Part shown: positions 51,931 through 60,337 of the stretch, one piece after another
Layout: each line of letters begins with the position of its first letter
How positions within the stretch are numbered: position 1 is the first letter of the stretch
Assembly (NCBI GenBank): GCA_015200345.1
Contig: CP054187.1
Span: 2,154,470 to 2,218,469 of the forward strand
Origin: Planctomycetia bacterium
Lineage (GTDB): Bacteria; Planctomycetota; Phycisphaerae; UBA1845; UTPLA1
Direction: 5' to 3'
Length of the DNA stretch: 64,000 nt
Made by a program: the position numbers and the translations under genes
The notes under the pieces: model-generated
What the model was told of the DNA's origin: nothing
What the model saw: the letters and a program-made list of their open reading frames with translations, nothing else
The model's database searches: none

Positions 51931-52473
51931 ATGGCGCAATCATTATCCACACACAGGAGCGATGCGCGGCCGCTGGTGCTGGTCACGCTCTGCGGCGGCG
52001 GCTGGCATCGCGAGACCCAGCGCATGCTGGAACAGTTCCCGGCGGACCAATTTCGCTACGCGTATGTTTACGGCCATTGCCGCGGTGTCCACGGCGCGGC
52101 CCGGCTGGAGATGCCGCACGACGGCCCTCGCTACCCGATGCACTACCTCGGGCCGACGCGTGCGCAGCGGTTCGGCTGGATCGGCAACGCCGTGCGCTTC
52201 GCGCGGTCGATGATCGAGGCCGATCGACTGGTCAGGCGGCTTCGCCCGGCCGCCATCCTCGCGGTCGGCACGGCCATGGCGCTGCCCCTGTTCGTCGCCG
52301 GGCGAAGGTGCGGCGCGACCTGTGTGTTTGTCGAATCGCTGACGAGATTTCGCAATTTGTCTGCGACCGGGCGATGGGTGCGGCGGCTGCGCCTGGCGGA
52401 TCGGCTGTACGTCCAGTGGCCACGGTTGCAGCGGACGCTTCCGGGCACGACGTACGCGGGGGCGGTGCTGTGA
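51931..52473 (+). CDS. Alg14/PssD-like glycosyltransferase subunit
   Basis: This 180-residue protein is the membrane-anchoring, acceptor-binding partner of a split GT-B glycosyltransferase. It has 'VLVTLCGGGWHRETQRMLEQ' near the N-terminus, similar to the 'GsGGHt.em..l' of Alg14, then 'PAAILAVGTAMALPLFVAGR' and 'CVFVESLTRFRNLSATGR'. The stop overlaps the start of the Alg13-like gene (GTGA). The two together likely add a sugar during polysaccharide or glycolipid synthesis. Confidence 0.75.
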   Translation: MAQSLSTHRSDARPLVLVTLCGGGWHRETQRMLEQFPADQFRYAYVYGHCRGVHGAARLEMPHDGPRYPMHYLGPTRAQRFGWIGNAVRFARSMIEADRLVRRLRPAAILAVGTAMALPLFVAGRRCGATCVFVESLTRFRNLSATGRWVRRLRLADRLYVQWPRLQRTLPGTTYAGAVL

Positions 52474-53087
52474 TCCTTGTCACCGTCGGCACACAGTTTT
52501 TTGACGAGTTGATCGACGAGGTGGACCGCCTCGCCGGCGCGAGAGCCTTCGACCAATTCACCGGCGCGGGGGCGGCAACAACTCTTGCCGACACATCTCC
52601 TGCCAGCGCTGGCCCCGCTTTTCATGGGCCGAACCGGCTGAAAGCCCGCGCCGCAGAGTGCGCAAAAGCCACGCCGGTGTCGGGCCGGCTGGAAACCGGC
52701 GGCGCAGCCGTCTTTGCGCAGATCGGCCTGCAAAAGAAGCCGCCGAAACATATCGCCCACGTCGCGTTCGATCGCGAGCTGGTCAGCAAGGCACGGCGGG
52801 CCGATCTCATCATCACGCATGCCGGCACCGGCTCGCTGATGGAGTTCCTCCCGATGGGCCGGCCGCTCATCGCCGTCGCGAACCCGACCAAGGCCGACAA
52901 CCACCAGTTGGAGTTCCTGCACGCGCTGGATGATGAATACGATTTCTGCTGGATCGCCGAACCGCGCTACCTCGAATCCGCCTTGCCCCAGGCGCGCCCG
53001 CCTCGACGGCGACACCATCCCGGCAATGCCCCCGGGCCGAGCATCGGCGAAAACATCGCCGCGTTCCTAGTCGGCAGAATTGAATAG
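52470..53087 (+). CDS. Alg13/PssE-like glycosyltransferase catalytic subunit
   Basis: The 205-residue protein starts at GTG 52470, overlapping the Alg14-like stop by four bases. It begins 'ILVTVGTQFFDELIDEVDRL', the Alg13 signature, and has 'ADLIITHAGTGSLMEFLPMG' and 'PLIAVANPTKADNHQLEFLHAL', the UDP-sugar-binding half of GT28. About 50 extra residues (roughly 30-80, low similarity) interrupt the domain between 'GARAFDQF' and 'VFAQIGLQKKPPKHIAHVAF'. They are encoded by repeat-like DNA. The C-terminus is arginine/proline-rich. Confidence 0.75.
   Translation: MILVTVGTQFFDELIDEVDRLAGARAFDQFTGAGAATTLADTSPASAGPAFHGPNRLKARAAECAKATPVSGRLETGGAAVFAQIGLQKKPPKHIAHVAFDRELVSKARRADLIITHAGTGSLMEFLPMGRPLIAVANPTKADNHQLEFLHALDDEYDFCWIAEPRYLESALPQARPPRRRHHPGNAPGPSIGENIAAFLVGRIE
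52610..52712. repeat. Repeat-like in-frame insertion in the Alg13-like gene
   Basis: The stretch contains short palindromic cores such as GGCTGAAAGCC and CCGGCTGGAAACCGG and is read without a frameshift. It has a different sequence from the repeat in the E1 gene but the same style. Boundaries are approximate. Confidence 0.45.
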
Positions 53088-53099
53088 GGCCGATCTGGC

Positions 53100-53116
53100 G
53101 GCAATAATTTATTGCC
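53100..53116 (+). terminator. Weak hairpin after the Alg13-like gene
   Basis: GGCAAT pairs with ATTGCC around a five-base loop and is followed by TTTGCG. It could weakly terminate the upstream plus-strand gene. It lies beyond the tracrRNA terminator on the opposite strand. Confidence 0.35.
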
Positions 53117-53126
53117 TTTGCGCAAT

Positions 53127-53232
53127 AAAAAGGCCGCACCCTTGCGGTTGCGGCCGGTCGCCCCGTGGGGCGTGGCCTGCGAATCTTTCTTCTTGTTACG
53201 AAAAGACACGCGGGCCGAGGTCGATTACACTG
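53127..53232 (-). ncRNA. tracrRNA of the type II CRISPR-Cas system
   Basis: On the minus strand the sequence begins AGTGTAATCGACC, identical to one end of the CRISPR repeat, and continues through about 36 nt of anti-repeat that matches the repeat with a few mismatches. It then has GGCCACGCCCC/GGGGCG-type stem-loops and a final hairpin GGCCGCA...TGCGGCC (53132-53155) followed by TTTTT. Length is about 105 nt. tracrRNA pairs with each crRNA repeat and is bound by Cas9. It lies between the Alg13-like gene and cas9, antisense to cas9. A promoter with ideal spacing is directly upstream. Confidence 0.9.
53132..53155 (-). terminator. tracrRNA intrinsic terminator
   Basis: GGCCGCA (53132-53138) pairs with TGCGGCC (53149-53155). 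The minus strand continues with TTTTT (plus-strand AAAAA at 53127-53131), the expected U tract. Confidence 0.85.
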
Positions 53233-53238
53233 GTCGTA

Positions 53239-53267
53239 ATTCTGCCAAAATGCAACCGGCTTGTCAA
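53239..53267 (-). promoter_or_regulatory. tracrRNA promoter
   Basis: On the minus strand a consensus -35 TTGACA (53262-53267) and a -10 CAGAAT (53239-53244) are spaced by 17 bases. The predicted start falls at about 53232, exactly at the anti-repeat. Confidence 0.75.
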
Positions 53268-53299: not shown

Positions 53300-56200
53300 A
53301 TGTCTGGGTTGGTTCTGGGGCTGGATTTGGGGCCTAACTCTCTCGGCTGGGCGTTAGTTGACGAATCCGAGGGGGGGAAGGGGTTGATCGATTGCGGGGT
53401 GCGGGTGTTTCCGGAGGGTGTCGACAATTTCGACACCAAGAAAGAAACGCCGCGCAACGAGGCCCGCAGGATTGCCCGTGGCATGCGGCGGCAAATCGCT
53501 CGACGCGCTCGGCGGAAACGCCGCCTACGCGAGGCTCTCATTGCATCCGGTCTATACCCTGCCGGTCCCGGTGAGCAAAAGAAGCTCGAAGGCCTGGATC
53601 CATACGAGTTGCGCGCCCGCGCATTGGATGAACCGCTCAAGCCTTACGAGATTGGCCGCATCTTGCTGCACTTTGGACAGCGCCGAGGGTTTCTATCGAA
53701 TCGAAAGCGGGAACGCACGAACAATGAAGTCAAGGGCATGCTCGCGGAAATGAGCGCCTTACAGGCCGACATTGAAGCAACCGGCGCGCGAACGCTTGGC
53801 GAGTATCTTCACCGCAAGTCGCGCGAAATGAACCACTGCAAGCGAGTTGATAATGACCACGTTCGACGTCGCCACACCCGGCGCGACATGCTCTCTTATG
53901 AGTTCGACAGAATCTGGAAAGAACAATCTAAACATCATGCCGGCCTCTTAACGGACAAGCTGCGGTATGGCGCATCCGGCGCGGCACAAAAATTTCCGTC
54001 GTTGCCCCGCAGGCGGAAAAAGGGCCAATCATTTCTTGATGCCTTTGGCGTCGAGGGGCTGATTTTCTTTCAGCGGCCAATCTATTGGCCTCGGTCGGTA
54101 GTCGGCAAGTGTGAGTTGGAGCCAAAGCAAAAGCGGTGTGCCCGCGCGGACCGCCGAGCGCAGCGGTTTCGCCTTCTACAGGAAGTTAATAATTTGAGGT
54201 ATATCGATCCGGATACAAATCAAGAGCGGTCTCTTTCGCCGGAGCATCGCGACACGCTACTTAAAAAGTTGTCTCGGTCCAAGGAAATGGATTTCGACAA
54301 AATTCGCAAGGCGCTGGGGTTGCACGAATCGGTGCAGTTTAACCTCGAATCCGGCAAGAGAAAAAAACTTTGGGGCATGGTGACGGATTCGCTTCTGGCC
54401 GCCAAGGGCGCATACGGGCCGAAATGGCATGAACTGGCGGAGCAGACCAAGAACCGCGTCGTCGAATTGCTTGTGCTTTCGACGGATGATGACGAAACTG
54501 CCGAACGCCTGATAGAGGAGTGCGGCCTGACAAGGAGCCAGGCCGAGTCGGTGCTGGGTGTAGATCTGCCGCAGGGCTACATCCACTTGTCGGTGATGGC
54601 TCTCAACAAGCTTATTCCCCCTCTTGAACGCGGCTTGAAGCTGATGGGAAACGACGAAACGGATTCAGCGATGCACGCTGCTGGGTATATGCGCCGAGAT
54701 CAGCTCCAACGGCGAGTCTTCGACCATTTGCCAGACCCAACGAGAGCAAGGGACGCTCGCATCGGCGACATTCCAAGCCCTGTTGTTAAACGAGCAATCG
54801 TTGAATTGCGGAAGGTCGTCAACGCCATCATCCGCGAGTACGGCAAGCCCGCAGCGGTACATGTTGAATTAACGCGCCAGGTTCGACAGGGGCCAGAAGC
54901 TCGCCGTGAATACACGTCTCGTATCCGCGAAATTGAAGAAGAGCGCGCGGCGGCGGCTGACGAAATACGCAAACTCAAGATAGGGGGGGCGTCTGTAGCT
55001 GTCAATCGCGACAGCATTCTGCGTTGGCTGTTGTGGAAGCAGCAGAACCATGACTGCATCTACTGTGGCAATAAGATCAGCCAGGCACAGTTATTCGGCG
55101 GCGAGATCGACGTGGACCACATCTTGCCGTATTCACGCAGCCTCGATGACTCACAGATGAACAAGGTTGTCTGTCATCGAAATTGCAATAGCGACAAAGG
55201 CAATCAAGCGCCCTACGAATGGTTGTGCGATAAGAATCCCAAGAAATACGCCGAAGTTCTGCAACATGCTTTGTCACTGGTTCGGCGCGGGACGCTGCCC
55301 TACAAAAAATACCGCAGAATCAGCCAGAAAGATTTGATATTGGACGACTTTATCGCTCGTCAACTGACGGCGACCGGCTACATCACCAGTGCAACCGTGG
55401 AGTATCTAAAATGTTTGTTTGAAAACGAGCACGCCGTACTCGGCCTGAAGGGCGAGTTGACGGCGGAGCTGCGACACCAGTGGGGGCTTGATGACGTGCT
55501 GTCATCGCTGCCAGACAGCCCCGCCTGGCAGGAGCAGGCCGATCTGCGGTCAGGGGAAAAGAATCGCGCCGACCACCGCCACCACGCAATAGACGCGATC
55601 GTCGTCGCGCTGACAAATCGCTCTCGCCTTCAACAGCTGTCGCGCATTCGCAAGAGGGGCGGGGGAGACAGGGCTGACGAAGCCCTGCCCGCGCCGTGGG
55701 CGTCATTCCGTGATGATGTTGTTGCGAAGATCAGAGATATCAACGTGTCGCGTCGCGCCAAAAGGAAGGTGGCGGGCGCGCTGCATGACGACAACCCTTT
55801 TGGCAAGACGCAGAGGCCGGGGTACTTTGTCAAGCGCAAGCCGCTGATAGAGCTCTCACCAAGCGAAATAGACAAGATACGCGACGCCGCTATCAAGGAC
55901 ATTGTAAAGGGCGAGCTGTCTCGGGCCGGCATTATCGCTGGGCGCGGGAAGGGGGTGGATGGTGGGGCGATGAAGAAGGTCTTGGCAGAATTAACAATGC
56001 CGTCAGGCGTCCCTATTAAACGCGCTCGGCTCTTGGTGCCCAGTGAAACCATTAGACCGATCCGTGAGAAAACACCGCACGAAGTACAAGTCAATCCGAT
56101 GTCAACACATCACTTGGCGTTGTTCGAGTGGGATGAAGGCGGTAAGACAAAGCGCAAAGCTGTTTTCGTCACAATGATCGACGCCATTAAGCGGCTCAAG

Positions 56201-56491
56201 TGCCACGAGCCCATTATCCAACGCAATCCGCCCAACAATAATGCTGGTATTCCGCAAAATGCACGATTTGTGTTTTCGCTAAGCGGCGGAGAGCTTGTGT
56301 TGGTTGATGTCGGGGGTAACAAAAAGCTCCTTGTCTTTGACACCGCGGCTCAAACATCACAGCAGATGTGGTTTTATGAACATACCGACGCCCGAAAGCA
56401 CAAGAGGCTGTATAGTTTCATGCCGAATACCCTCAAGGCGCGAAAGGTGACGGTAGACCCCCTAGGTCGTATTCGCTGGGCCAACGACTGA
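53300..56491 (+). CDS. cas9: Type II-C CRISPR effector endonuclease Cas9
   Basis: The RNA-guided nuclease has 1063 residues from ATG 53300, with AAAGGGAG upstream. RuvC-I is 'LGLDLGPNSLGWAL' with Asp9. The arginine-rich bridge helix spans about 52-80. RuvC-II is 'AVHVELTRQV' with Glu523. The HNH domain (about 580-645) has His607 in 'DVDHILPYSR', plus C586/C589 and C625/C629 as a possible zinc knuckle. RuvC-III is 'RHHAIDAIVVA' with His762 and Asp765. The remaining C-terminal part (about 800-1063) is the wedge/PAM-interacting region. All catalytic residues are present, so it looks active. Size and the absence of csn2 and cas4 place it in II-C. Some stretches are AT-richer than the neighbours. 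Confidence 0.97.
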   Translation: MSGLVLGLDLGPNSLGWALVDESEGGKGLIDCGVRVFPEGVDNFDTKKETPRNEARRIARGMRRQIARRARRKRRLREALIASGLYPAGPGEQKKLEGLDPYELRARALDEPLKPYEIGRILLHFGQRRGFLSNRKRERTNNEVKGMLAEMSALQADIEATGARTLGEYLHRKSREMNHCKRVDNDHVRRRHTRRDMLSYEFDRIWKEQSKHHAGLLTDKLRYGASGAAQKFPSLPRRRKKGQSFLDAFGVEGLIFFQRPIYWPRSVVGKCELEPKQKRCARADRRAQRFRLLQEVNNLRYIDPDTNQERSLSPEHRDTLLKKLSRSKEMDFDKIRKALGLHESVQFNLESGKRKKLWGMVTDSLLAAKGAYGPKWHELAEQTKNRVVELLVLSTDDDETAERLIEECGLTRSQAESVLGVDLPQGYIHLSVMALNKLIPPLERGLKLMGNDETDSAMHAAGYMRRDQLQRRVFDHLPDPTRARDARIGDIPSPVVKRAIVELRKVVNAIIREYGKPAAVHVELTRQVRQGPEARREYTSRIREIEEERAAAADEIRKLKIGGASVAVNRDSILRWLLWKQQNHDCIYCGNKISQAQLFGGEIDVDHILPYSRSLDDSQMNKVVCHRNCNSDKGNQAPYEWLCDKNPKKYAEVLQHALSLVRRGTLPYKKYRRISQKDLILDDFIARQLTATGYITSATVEYLKCLFENEHAVLGLKGELTAELRHQWGLDDVLSSLPDSPAWQEQADLRSGEKNRADHRHHAIDAIVVALTNRSRLQQLSRIRKRGGGDRADEALPAPWASFRDDVVAKIRDINVSRRAKRKVAGALHDDNPFGKTQRPGYFVKRKPLIELSPSEIDKIRDAAIKDIVKGELSRAGIIAGRGKGVDGGAMKKVLAELTMPSGVPIKRARLLVPSETIRPIREKTPHEVQVNPMSTHHLALFEWDEGGKTKRKAVFVTMIDAIKRLKCHEPIIQRNPPNNNAGIPQNARFVFSLSGGELVLVDVGGNKKLLVFDTAAQTSQQMWFYEHTDARKHKRLYSFMPNTLKARKVTVDPLGRIRWAND

Positions 56492-56538: not shown

Positions 56539-57558
56539 ATGGGGGCCGTGATCAAGCGCACGATCGAAATCTCCCAGAACCCCGCCTACCTGGCCGTCCG
56601 CGACGGCCAACTCCTCCTCCGCGCGCAGCGCGAGAATACTGACACCCAGCCGGACCGCGACCCCGACGGGGCGGGTTCTTCCCGGCGCGGTGCCCGAGCG
56701 CAACACGATCCGGACCATCGACCCACGCCGGCCATTCCCTGCGAGGACATCGGCGTCCTGCTGGTCGATCACCCCGCCGTGACGTATTCACACAGCGCGC
56801 TCACAACACTCCTTGAGCATGATGCCGCCGTTGTACTTTGCGGGAGAAACCACCTGCCAATCGGATTGCTGCTGCCGATCGCGGAGCACTCGCAGGTCGT
56901 CTGGCGAGTGCAGGCCCAAATCAACGTGCCGAAGCCCGTCCGAAAGCGACTGTGGCAGCAAATCATCCGCGCCAAGATTCGCGCGCAAGCGGCGAACCTG
57001 TTGCCCGACACCCTCACACGTACCAAGCTGCTCGGCCTGGCGCGGAATGTCCGCTCCGGCGACCCTGACAACCTCGAAGCCCAGGCTGCTCGGGCCTATT
57101 GGCCGGCATGGCTTCAAACCATTCACGCCGAGGCGGCGGGCAGAGCCGCCGTGCCGGATTTCCGGCGCGATGCCGACGGCCCAGCACCGAACAACCTGCT
57201 CAATTATGGCTACGCCGTCCTGCGCGCGGCCGTCGCGCGGGCCTTGGTATGCGCCGGCCTGTTCCCGGCCCTGGGATTGAAGCACTCGAACCGTTCCAAC
57301 GCGTTCTGCCTGGCGGACGATCTCGTGGAGCCGCTTCGTCCCATGGTGGACGCGGCCGTGAGTGGGCTTGCGCGTCAAGGGGTGCTTGAGCTCGGCCCGG
57401 ACAGCAAGAAAGCGCTCTTGGGGCTGCTCGCATCGGACGTCGAACTAGCGGGACAAACCGGCCCGCTCATGGTCGCGCTGCATCGTTTTGCCGCATCCCT
57501 GGCGAAGTGTCTCGACGGCGACGCCGAGGAACTGGAGATTCCGGTCGCATGTACTTGA
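56539..57558 (+). CDS. cas1: CRISPR-associated integrase Cas1
   Basis: Cas1 inserts new spacers together with Cas2. The protein has 339 residues. The metal-binding triad is Glu180 ('DNLEAQAARAYW'), His249 ('GLKHSNRSNAF') and Asp260/261 ('LADDLVEPLRP'). The N-terminal beta domain has 'EDIGVLLVDHPAVTYSHSAL' and 'CGRNHLPIGLLLP'. It carries about 30 extra Arg/Asp/Pro-rich residues (about 34-63) not typical of the family. GTG 56548 is an alternative start. It is 47 bases after cas9 and overlaps cas2 by 10 bases. Confidence 0.95.
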   Translation: MGAVIKRTIEISQNPAYLAVRDGQLLLRAQRENTDTQPDRDPDGAGSSRRGARAQHDPDHRPTPAIPCEDIGVLLVDHPAVTYSHSALTTLLEHDAAVVLCGRNHLPIGLLLPIAEHSQVVWRVQAQINVPKPVRKRLWQQIIRAKIRAQAANLLPDTLTRTKLLGLARNVRSGDPDNLEAQAARAYWPAWLQTIHAEAAGRAAVPDFRRDADGPAPNNLLNYGYAVLRAAVARALVCAGLFPALGLKHSNRSNAFCLADDLVEPLRPMVDAAVSGLARQGVLELGPDSKKALLGLLASDVELAGQTGPLMVALHRFAASLAKCLDGDAEELEIPVACT

Positions 57559-57878
57559 GCGGGTATCGCTGCATGTGGGTTATCGCCATGTTTGATTTGC
57601 CGGTCGATACGAAAGCGGCGCGAAAGGCCTACGCGCAGTTTCGCAAGGCCCTGCTCAAGGACGGCTTTGCCAAAATGCAGTTTTCGGTCTATATTAGAAA
57701 TTGTGCCAGCGAGGAAAACGCCAATGTGCACATCCAGCGCGTGCAGGGGTTTCTTCCGGACGACGGTGAAGTGCGCATCCTCACCATCACTGACAAGCAA
57801 TTTGAGCGCATGCGCGTTTTCTGGGGAAAACGGCGCAAGCCCCCCGAACCGGCCCCGCAACAACTCGAACTTTTTTAG
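57549..57878 (+). CDS. cas2: CRISPR-associated protein Cas2
   Basis: The 109-residue protein starts at ATG 57549, inside the cas1 end, which indicates coupling. The ferredoxin-like fold begins 'WVIAMFDLPVDTKAARKAY' with the conserved Asp16, then 'FAKMQFSVYIRNC' and 'GEVRILTITDKQFERM'. A proline-rich tail ends in 'LELF', as in many type II Cas2 proteins. It forms the adaptation complex with Cas1. The array starts 49 bases downstream. Confidence 0.95.
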   Translation: MYLSGYRCMWVIAMFDLPVDTKAARKAYAQFRKALLKDGFAKMQFSVYIRNCASEENANVHIQRVQGFLPDDGEVRILTITDKQFERMRVFWGKRRKPPEPAPQQLELF

Positions 57879-57926: not shown

Positions 57927-60337
57927 AGTGTAATCGACCCCGGCCTGCGAGCAATCCGCAACTGGGCCGGTCGATGAGCCGCCGAGCGACACAGTGTAAT
58001 CGACCCCGGCCTGCGAGCAATCCGCAACATCGCGCACGCGCCGGATGGCGTCGGCGCGAGTGTAATCGACCCCGGCCTGCGAGCAATCCGCAACTCCCTG
58101 TCGGCAGTCGAATTACATCGGTAAAGTGTAATCGACCCCGGCCTGCGAGCAATCCGCAACCGTCCTTATCCAGTTGACCGGCCACCTGTTAGTGTAATCG
58201 ACCCCGGCCTGCGAGCAATCCGCAACAATGCCCCATGTGCGCAGCCGGACGGCTGGAGTGTAATCGACCCCGGCCTGCGAGCAATCCGCAACTTAACATC
58301 AATCACCTCGCCTCGTCTTCTAGTGTAATCGACCCCGGCCTGCGAGCAATCCGCAACGCCCGCGAAGACGGAAAGGCCGACGATCCTAGTGTAATCGACC
58401 CCGGCCTGCGAGCAATCCGCAACGTTGGTTGGAACCAGCGTCTATGTTGATGAAGTGTAATCGACCCCGGCCTGCGAGCAATCCGCAACCCGTTGGTCGT
58501 CACGTTGACGCGGGTTTACAGTGTAATCGACCCCGGCCTGCGAGCAATCCGCAACTGACGGCTGCGGTTGGCCAGAAGGTGACGCAGTGTAATCGACCCC
58601 GGCCTGCGAGCAATCCGCAACCGACCGTCAGCAACGCCGCACAATCGGTCGAGTGTAATCGACCCCGGCCTGCGAGCAATCCGCAACCCTTCCTGCGCGG
58701 CCAGCGAACGCCGGTGAAGTGTAATCGACCCCGGCCTGCGAGCAATCCGCAACTGCCTGCGCGAGACAGAGATCGTCGCATGGAGTGTAATCGACCCCGG
58801 CCTGCGAGCAATCCGCAACTAATGTTGATCGGGCCGCCGGATGGCAGGAGTGTAATCGACCCCGGCCTGCGAGCAATCCGCAACAGTGGCCTTCCGGCGT
58901 GTCGGTGTCGTTCAAGTGTAATCGACCCCGGCCTGCGAGCAATCCGCAACGTCTGCCGTCAATTAGCAAACGGTCAATATAGTGTAATCGACCCCGGCCT
59001 GCGAGCAATCCGCAACTCAACGATTGCGACCAACAACAACGAGTCGAGTGTAATCGACCCCGGCCTGCGAGCAATCCGCAACCCGTTACGCTAAAATTGA
59101 CCCGTTCCGAAAAGTGTAATCGACCCCGGCCTGCGAGCAATCCGCAACTCATCGCGCATTCGCCGGGCGGCACACATTAGTGTAATCGACCCCGGCCTGC
59201 GAGCAATCCGCAACGTCGATGAACTGGTGATTCGCAACAACGCCAGTGTAATCGACCCCGGCCTGCGAGCAATCCGCAACTCAAGAACCTTATCTGCCGT
59301 CTCGTTTAAGAGTGTAATCGACCCCGGCCTGCGAGCAATCCGCAACGATACGTGCCGCACGGCCCATAGCCCGTATAGTGTAATCGACCCCGGCCTGCGA
59401 GCAATCCGCAACCGCGACGCGCATCGGCACGCCGGTATAGGCAGTGTAATCGACCCCGGCCTGCGAGCAATCCGCAACTATCGGTTCACGGGCAGGGCAG
59501 TACGAATCAGTGTAATCGACCCCGGCCTGCGAGCAATCCGCAACGCTAAAGCAAGCGATGCGGCGACTGACAAAAGTGTAATCGACCCCGGCCTGCGAGC
59601 AATCCGCAACCGAAACGACGGCACGTTGGACTATGCGGGAAGTGTAATCGACCCCGGCCTGCGAGCAATCCGCAACAGCGCGCCTTCCGGTTCGTGCTCG
59701 CTAGGCAGTGTAATCGACCCCGGCCTGCGAGCAATCCGCAACCATCAAAGCCGACGTGCCAAACTCTTGCTTAGTGTAATCGACCCCGGCCTGCGAGCAA
59801 TCCGCAACTTATTCCCCGTCCTGGCCGACAACTTGTTGAAGTGTAATCGACCCCGGCCTGCGAGCAATCCGCAACACAGCCCATGATTGGTCCAGCCCGC
59901 GTGAGAGTGTAATCGACCCCGGCCTGCGAGCAATCCGCAACACGGAATCATGGCAGCGGTTCTTGCAATCGAGTGTAATCGACCCCGGCCTGCGAGCAAT
60001 CCGCAACTGTGTCGGCTGCGCGACATCCGTCTTAGACAGTGTAATCGACCCCGACCCGCGAGCAATCCGCAACTCATCCAGGCCGCGCCTTCCTCGGTCG
60101 CGTAGTGTAATCGACCCCGACCCGCGAGCAATCCGCAACTGCCACGGAGGTGCCGGGCAGCGCGGCAAAAGTGTAATCGACCCCGACCCGCGAGCAATCC
60201 GCAACAGCACCAGCGCCGTGATGTCGCGCGTGGACAGTGTAATCGACCCCGACCCGCGAGCAATCCGCAACACGCTTGTAGAATTGCAGCGCACCGTTGC
60301 GAGTGTAATCGACCCCGACCCGCGAGCAATCCGCAAC
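57927..60337 (-). CRISPR. CRISPR array, 37 repeats of 36 bp and 36 spacers
   Basis: Direct counting gives 37 repeats beginning at 57927, 57993, 58059 and so on to 60302. Spacers are mostly 30 nt with a few of 29 or 31. On the crRNA strand (minus) the repeat starts GTTGCGGATTGCTCG and ends GGTCGATTACACT, the GTT...start typical of type II crRNA. Minus-strand transcription is inferred from this, from tracrRNA complementarity and from the AT-richer flank on the right. Repeats 33-37 (60038-60337) share two substitutions. The leftmost repeat is not degenerate. Spacers look unrelated to each other; targets are unknown. Confidence 0.97.

What the first reader, a model, noticed from the sequence alone, without database searches (positions are those of the whole stretch)
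53127..53267. A complete antisense tracrRNA gene can be read upstream of cas9
Promoter (TTGACA-17-CAGAAT), start at the anti-repeat, anti-repeat of about 36 nt, stem-loops and an intrinsic terminator are all visible in 140 bases on the minus strand. That supplies the natural guide scaffold of this Cas9 from sequence alone. The tracrRNA promoter and the cas9 ribosome-binding site nearly abut, so the two divergent transcripts may be regulated together.
Basis: partly seen in the sequence, partly recalled or inferred. Interest (0 to 1): 0.85.

Follow-up and report, generated by a model that had tools for sequence, protein, structure and literature searches.

The report
Self-locking Cas9 tracrRNA gene

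Summary
On the minus strand at 53127-53231 there is a complete type II-C tracrRNA gene: promoter TTGACA-17-CAGAAT, a 37-nt anti-repeat (53195-53231), a stem-loop and an intrinsic terminator. It is the only anti-repeat in the genome. About 70 related Planctomycetota loci have one on the strand opposite cas9, tracking each locus's own repeat. In 91% of them the best promoter ends 5-9 nt before the anti-repeat (12% by chance), so the RNA should start at the anti-repeat.

The guide-scaffold reading is supported. Joint control of tracrRNA and cas9 is not shown; their spacing varies widely in relatives.

The new point is the free fold. Anti-repeat nt 16-31 pair with the segment just downstream (53174-53189), leaving the first ~15 nt open. 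This pairing co-evolves: in 33 edge-disjoint sister pairs, swapping anti-repeats weakens it in 29 and strengthens it in 2 (p = 2e-7). Controls are null, and a separate set of 23 tracrRNAs repeats the result.

Most likely the tracrRNA is self-locked and is opened by crRNA through a toehold. The pairing is supported by comparison; the switch is inferred. I found no description of it in the open-access library.

The parts
53239..53267 (-). tracrRNA promoter TTGACA-17-CAGAAT, with TG before the -10
   Evidence: phasing to the anti-repeat conserved in 70 loci
53195..53231 (-). anti-repeat, 37 nt; predicted transcription start at or next to 53231
   Evidence: unique in the genome
53217..53231 (-). 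anti-repeat nt 1-15, unpaired in the free RNA: proposed toehold
53201..53216 (-). anti-repeat nt 16-31, paired in cis in the free RNA
   Evidence: co-evolution
53174..53189 (-). lock strand (tracrRNA nt 43-58), pairs with anti-repeat nt 16-31 when the RNA is free
53159..53172 (-). hairpin II, with compensatory changes in relatives
53127..53155 (-). intrinsic terminator: G+C-rich stem and TTTTT
53300..56491 (+). cas9, 1063 aa
   Evidence: TIGR01865 668 bits, Pfam HNH_4 and RuvC_III
56539..57558 (+). cas1, type II
   Evidence: TIGR03639
57507..57878 (+). cas2 (the open frame from the GTG at 57507; the homology begins at its residue 23)
57927..60337 (-). CRISPR array, 37 repeats of 36 nt and 30-nt spacers, crRNA on the minus strand

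Best explanation
This is the working tracrRNA gene of a type II-C CRISPR-Cas9 locus in a Planctomycetota genome (my confidence about 0.97). Transcription is predicted to start at the first anti-repeat base, so no longer 5' form is expected. In the free RNA the first ~15 anti-repeat bases stay single-stranded while the rest of the anti-repeat pairs with the segment immediately downstream (about 0.8). A pre-crRNA repeat would bind the open 5' part first and then displace the lock strand along the anti-repeat. This completes the repeat:anti-repeat duplex and frees the downstream segment to take its guide-bound shape for Cas9 (about 0.55). The likely benefit is that only RNAs matching the whole repeat open the tracrRNA, which would keep Cas9 from pairing with empty tracrRNA or stray transcripts. 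Shown by sequence comparison: the gene anatomy, repeat/anti-repeat co-variation, promoter phasing, and co-evolution of the lock pairing. Inferred: transcription, RNase III processing, the order of strand displacement, and the benefit.
For: Anatomy. Only anti-repeat in the genome. Own-repeat anti-repeat opposite cas9 in every relative whose array could be read; sister-pair control for repeat x anti-repeat: 18 of 19 non-zero contrasts favour the native pair. Promoter ends 5-9 nt before the anti-repeat in 91% of 70 loci against 12% in shuffles. Free fold -46.6 kcal/mol, z -4.1. Over 42 tracrRNAs the mean P(unpaired) is 0.82 for anti-repeat nt 1-12 and 0.22 for nt 15-28. Native anti-repeat + downstream better than swapped by 4.4 kcal/mol, 0 of 20000 permutations, confined to the 3' part of the anti-repeat and the nexus/lock segment. 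Repeated in 23 further tracrRNAs, z -5.2. 33 edge-disjoint sister pairs: 29 against 2, p 2e-7, controls null. Duplex-only test p 0.0006. Crude energetics allow displacement: lock worth 16.9, toehold duplex -23.9, net binding -31.7 kcal/mol.
Against: No RNA data. All folds are thermodynamic predictions; co-transcriptional folding or Cas9 binding could prevent the lock. With shuffled anti-repeats as the null, only 58% of 72 tracrRNAs reach p 0.05 one by one, although the window does. In the close clade the lock helix shows few two-sided compensatory changes. The distant subclade has a less open 5' end (toehold open above 0.7 in 18 of 30).
Confidence: 0.6

Rival explanations
1. Ordinary type II-C tracrRNA in which the cis hairpin only stabilises the free RNA: it shields tracrRNA from nucleases until crRNA arrives, without gating which RNAs bind.
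For: Explains the co-evolution of the hairpin without any switch; the lock is stable, median 13 kcal/mol.
Against: A pure stability hairpin need not use anti-repeat bases at all, nor leave the first ~12-15 bases open so regularly.
Confidence: 0.25
2. Self-inactivation: the cis hairpin is a substrate for RNase III, so that tracrRNA without crRNA is cut and removed.
For: The hairpin is 14 bp with small interruptions, and RNase III co-processes type II duplexes (PMC3936727).
Against: The paired runs are short and interrupted; RNase III cutting was not testable here.
Confidence: 0.08
3. The cis pairing has no function: the anti-repeat is held by the repeat and the downstream segment by Cas9, and their complementarity is incidental.
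For: Many single tracrRNAs are not significant against shuffled anti-repeats.
Against: Swap tests with internal, reversed and shuffled controls and phylogenetically independent sister pairs.
Confidence: 0.05
4. The functional RNA is on the plus strand, or the element is a cas9 leader and not a tracrRNA.
For: Complementarity between repeat and anti-repeat is symmetric and does not fix the strand; a terminator-like site also exists on the plus strand.
Against: Promoter and T-run terminator lie on the minus strand and flank the anti-repeat at conserved distances in about 70 loci.
Confidence: 0.02

Closest known systems
tracrRNA of type II-C CRISPR-Cas9 systems (e.g. Neisseria meningitidis, Campylobacter jejuni)
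   Same: Anti-repeat, short RNA, stem-loops and terminator, next to a II-C cas9 with cas1 and cas2.
   Different: A strong co-evolving self-lock of the anti-repeat.
CRISPRCas_38, a covariation model of II-C tracrRNA, mostly Bacteroidetes (PMC9067536)
   Same: Structured II-C tracrRNA, typically within 100 bases upstream of cas9.
   Different: Other phylum; no switch or lock is discussed in its text. The models could not be compared directly.
tracr-L, the long tracrRNA of S. pyogenes II-A that represses the cas promoter (PMC11417352)
   Same: A tracrRNA with a second role beyond guide formation.
   Different: Here the promoter abuts the anti-repeat, so there is no 5' guide-like extension.
Toehold riboregulators (synthetic, e.g. 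PMC9071393)
   Same: An open toehold next to a hairpin that a trigger RNA would unzip by strand displacement.
   Different: Natural and only predicted; the trigger would be the crRNA repeat and the output guide assembly.

Membership tests
type II tracrRNA | anti-repeat complementary to the array repeat | tested here: met
type II tracrRNA | encoded near cas9 and unique in the genome | tested here: met
type II tracrRNA | own promoter, stem-loops and terminator | tested here: met
   sequence level only:
type II tracrRNA | match to an existing RNA family model | tested here: not met
   no Rfam match at gathering score and no tracrRNA family even at E 5. Not a defining trait: Rfam is reported to hold one tracrRNA family (PMC9067536).
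type II tracrRNA | transcribed, co-processed with pre-crRNA by RNase III, required by Cas9 | not testable with these tools
   needs RNA and protein experiments
subtype II-C locus | about 1000-aa Cas9 with cas1 and cas2 and no csn2 or cas4 between cas9 and the array | tested here: met
   closest solved chains are Cas9s of about 1080 aa, best E 3e-64. No separate csn2/cas4 profile scan of the whole genome was made.
tracr-L type autoregulation | 5' extension of tracrRNA that guides Cas9 to the cas promoter | tested here: not met
   promoter ends 7 nt before the anti-repeat; no solo repeat near cas9 in the window
toehold-gated RNA switch (works like) | open toehold plus conserved hairpin that excludes the trigger-bound state | tested here: met
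   predicted folds and co-evolution only:
toehold-gated RNA switch (works like) | trigger opens the hairpin through the toehold and changes activity | not testable with these tools
   needs binding kinetics and Cas9 loading assays

The most novel reading that the evidence does not exclude
Planctomycetota type II-C tracrRNAs are natural toehold-gated switches: free tracrRNA hides half of its anti-repeat with an evolved lock strand, and only a full-length repeat opens it, so that the Cas9-binding scaffold forms only once a true crRNA is bound.
Probability: 0.45. Interest if true: 0.75.

Novelty: new variant of a known kind. Interest (0 to 1): 0.52.

Why it matters
How Cas9 avoids pairing tracrRNA with the wrong RNA matters, because host transcripts can act as noncanonical crRNAs (PMC8224270). 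A built-in lock would be a simple proofreading step that can be tested in vitro by changing a few bases. It would also mean that the free tracrRNA fold has to be considered when tracrRNAs are reprogrammed. At the least, the window gives a full natural scaffold for a Cas9 whose solved relatives are only distant.

Tried and rejected
The lock strand as a copy of the crRNA repeat: in the window it shares TCGCAGGCC with the repeat, but over 53 loci the match to the own repeat is no better than to others, so I call it a strand complementary to the anti-repeat.

Target phages for PAM inference: the array matched none of 50,697 phage records. Cas9 relatives in viral contigs: none. Rfam: no match. Array leader promoter: none by consensus scan. 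A cas9 promoter between tracrRNA and cas9: none; the only plus-strand hit lies at 53080-53108.

Literature searches for a self-paired or toehold tracrRNA gave nothing relevant. The tracrRNA family and type II classification papers that I looked up by id are not held, so novelty is provisional.

Full report
What is there. The window lies in a 3.88-Mb genome whose named Cas9 relatives are Planctomycetota, one of them Phycisphaerae. It holds a compact type II-C locus: cas9 at 53300-56491 (TIGR01865, 668 bits), cas1 at 56539-57558, cas2 ending at 57878, and an array of 37 repeats of 36 nt at 57927-60337. The crRNA strand of the array is the minus strand, because the tracrRNA that pairs with it is on the minus strand.

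The observation. On the minus strand upstream of cas9 there is a promoter (TTGACA-17-CAGAAT, 53267-53239), a 37-nt anti-repeat (53231-53195), a hairpin (53172-53159) and a terminator ending in TTTTT at 53131-53127. The anti-repeat core occurs nowhere else in the genome; all other non-array matches have three mismatches. Repeat and anti-repeat give the usual lower stem, internal loop and upper stem; binding is predicted at -31.7 kcal/mol net of the free folds. Five repeats at the cas-distal end carry a variant that repairs the one A/C mismatch with the anti-repeat, net -33.8.

Comparative test of the gene. Cas9 relatives were collected from relatives, class and phylum searches and their loci read. 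In every Planctomycetota locus whose array could be read, an anti-repeat for that locus's own repeat was found on the strand opposite cas9 and upstream of it; one contig (L089) holds only part of it. In the first set the distance to cas9 runs from about 60 to about 630 nt. In 70 loci the best promoter ends 5-9 nt before the anti-repeat in 91%, against 12% in shuffles, so the RNA should start at anti-repeat nt 1. Hairpin II and the terminator stem show compensatory changes. The tracrRNA identification is about as strong as sequence alone allows.

The lock. Folding the free tracrRNA gave a structure in which anti-repeat nt 16-31 pair with nt 43-58 (window 53189-53174), while nt 1-15 are open (-46.6 kcal/mol, z -4.1). 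I then asked whether this recurs. In 42 tracrRNAs the mean probability of being unpaired is 0.82 for anti-repeat nt 1-12 and 0.22 for nt 15-28. The lock is worth 3 to 20 kcal/mol, median 13, over 69 tracrRNAs. In a distant subclade with different anti-repeats (AGTGTATCTGAGCGACG...) a hairpin of the same kind is rebuilt from different sequence, though its 5' end is open less regularly.

Is the lock more than chance? Three tests were made. First, every anti-repeat was joined to every downstream part: the native pair is better by 4.4 kcal/mol after removing row and column effects, 0 of 20000 permutations. The effect resides in the nexus/lock segment (-4.2) and the 3' part of the anti-repeat (-3.7). 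It is absent for anti-repeat nt 1-15 (-0.2), reversed anti-repeats (0.0) and shuffled ones (-0.1), and small for hairpin II plus terminator (-0.3). Second, 23 tracrRNAs collected afterwards by an automatic rule gave z -5.2, and -7.2 for nt 11 to the end, with controls null. Third, to remove shared ancestry, 33 edge-disjoint sister pairs were taken from a Cas9 tree and anti-repeats were swapped within each pair. Pairing weakened in 29 and strengthened in 2 (p 2e-7); the 5'-part and reversed controls gave 10:11 and 17:15. A duplex-only version confined to anti-repeat nt 11-26 and downstream nt 1-45 gives p 0.0006; the other combinations tried are not significant. Against these, with shuffled anti-repeats as the null only 58% of 72 tracrRNAs reach p 0.05 singly, the window among them.

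How it most likely works. The lock uses anti-repeat bases that must also pair with crRNA, so the two states exclude each other. The open first 15 bases bind the repeat 3' end at -23.9 kcal/mol, which makes them a natural toehold. Strand displacement would then remove the lock strand, complete the duplex and release the downstream segment to form the bound scaffold. The pairing and its co-evolution are supported by comparison. The order of events, and the idea that this proofreads crRNA identity or holds back empty tracrRNA, are inference. The main rival is that the hairpin only stabilises the free RNA.

What was not supported. Joint control of tracrRNA and cas9 remains open: no cas9 promoter was found in the gap and the spacing varies widely in relatives. 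The lock strand is not in general a copy of the repeat. Outside Planctomycetota the lock was not significant in the two loci tested; the comparison with model tracrRNAs used sequences recalled from memory and is only a hint.

Novelty. The tracrRNA itself is a new member of a known kind. A co-evolving self-lock with an open toehold was not found in the open-access papers searched. The one covariation model of a II-C tracrRNA that I could read about, CRISPRCas_38 in Bacteroidetes (PMC9067536), is not discussed as a switch in its text. Papers on tracrRNA families that I looked up by id are not held, so this judgement is provisional.

A side finding. Three related loci, not the window, carry a solo repeat between tracrRNA and cas9 whose preceding 30 nt end in a 12-14-nt match to a nearby site. 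They look like self-regulating crRNAs and are listed below.

Noticed in passing
L085 (+ strand coordinates about 1520-1613), L088 (about 1660-1805), L111 (about 1893-2150): A solo CRISPR repeat between tracrRNA and cas9; the 30 nt before it end in a 12-, 12- or 14-nt seed match to a site in the same intergenic region (about 0.0005 expected for 11 nt or more within 500 nt either side). In L085 and L088 the site overlaps the -35 region of a promoter-like sequence before the solo repeat. Candidate self-regulating crRNAs (scaRNA or creRNA type); absent from the window.
   Followed up: partly
L153: A repeat-like copy outside the array (score 48), possibly the same kind of element.
   Followed up: no
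window 60038-60337: The five cas-distal repeats carry GCGGGTCGGG in place of GCAGGCCGGG, which replaces the A/C mismatch with the anti-repeat by a G-C pair and binds about 2 kcal/mol better.
   Followed up: partly
window 51931-53087: Two overlapping plus-strand frames upstream of the tracrRNA look like an Alg14/Alg13-type glycosyltransferase pair (judged by eye, no family search). They end about 40 nt from the tracrRNA terminator, in convergent orientation.
   Followed up: no
window 53226-53231 (+ strand) and the 3' end of every repeat: Repeats end in TACACT, like the -10 box that N. meningitidis repeats carry (from memory). The same hexamer on the plus strand of the anti-repeat points at cas9 and could serve as its promoter; not tested.
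   Followed up: no
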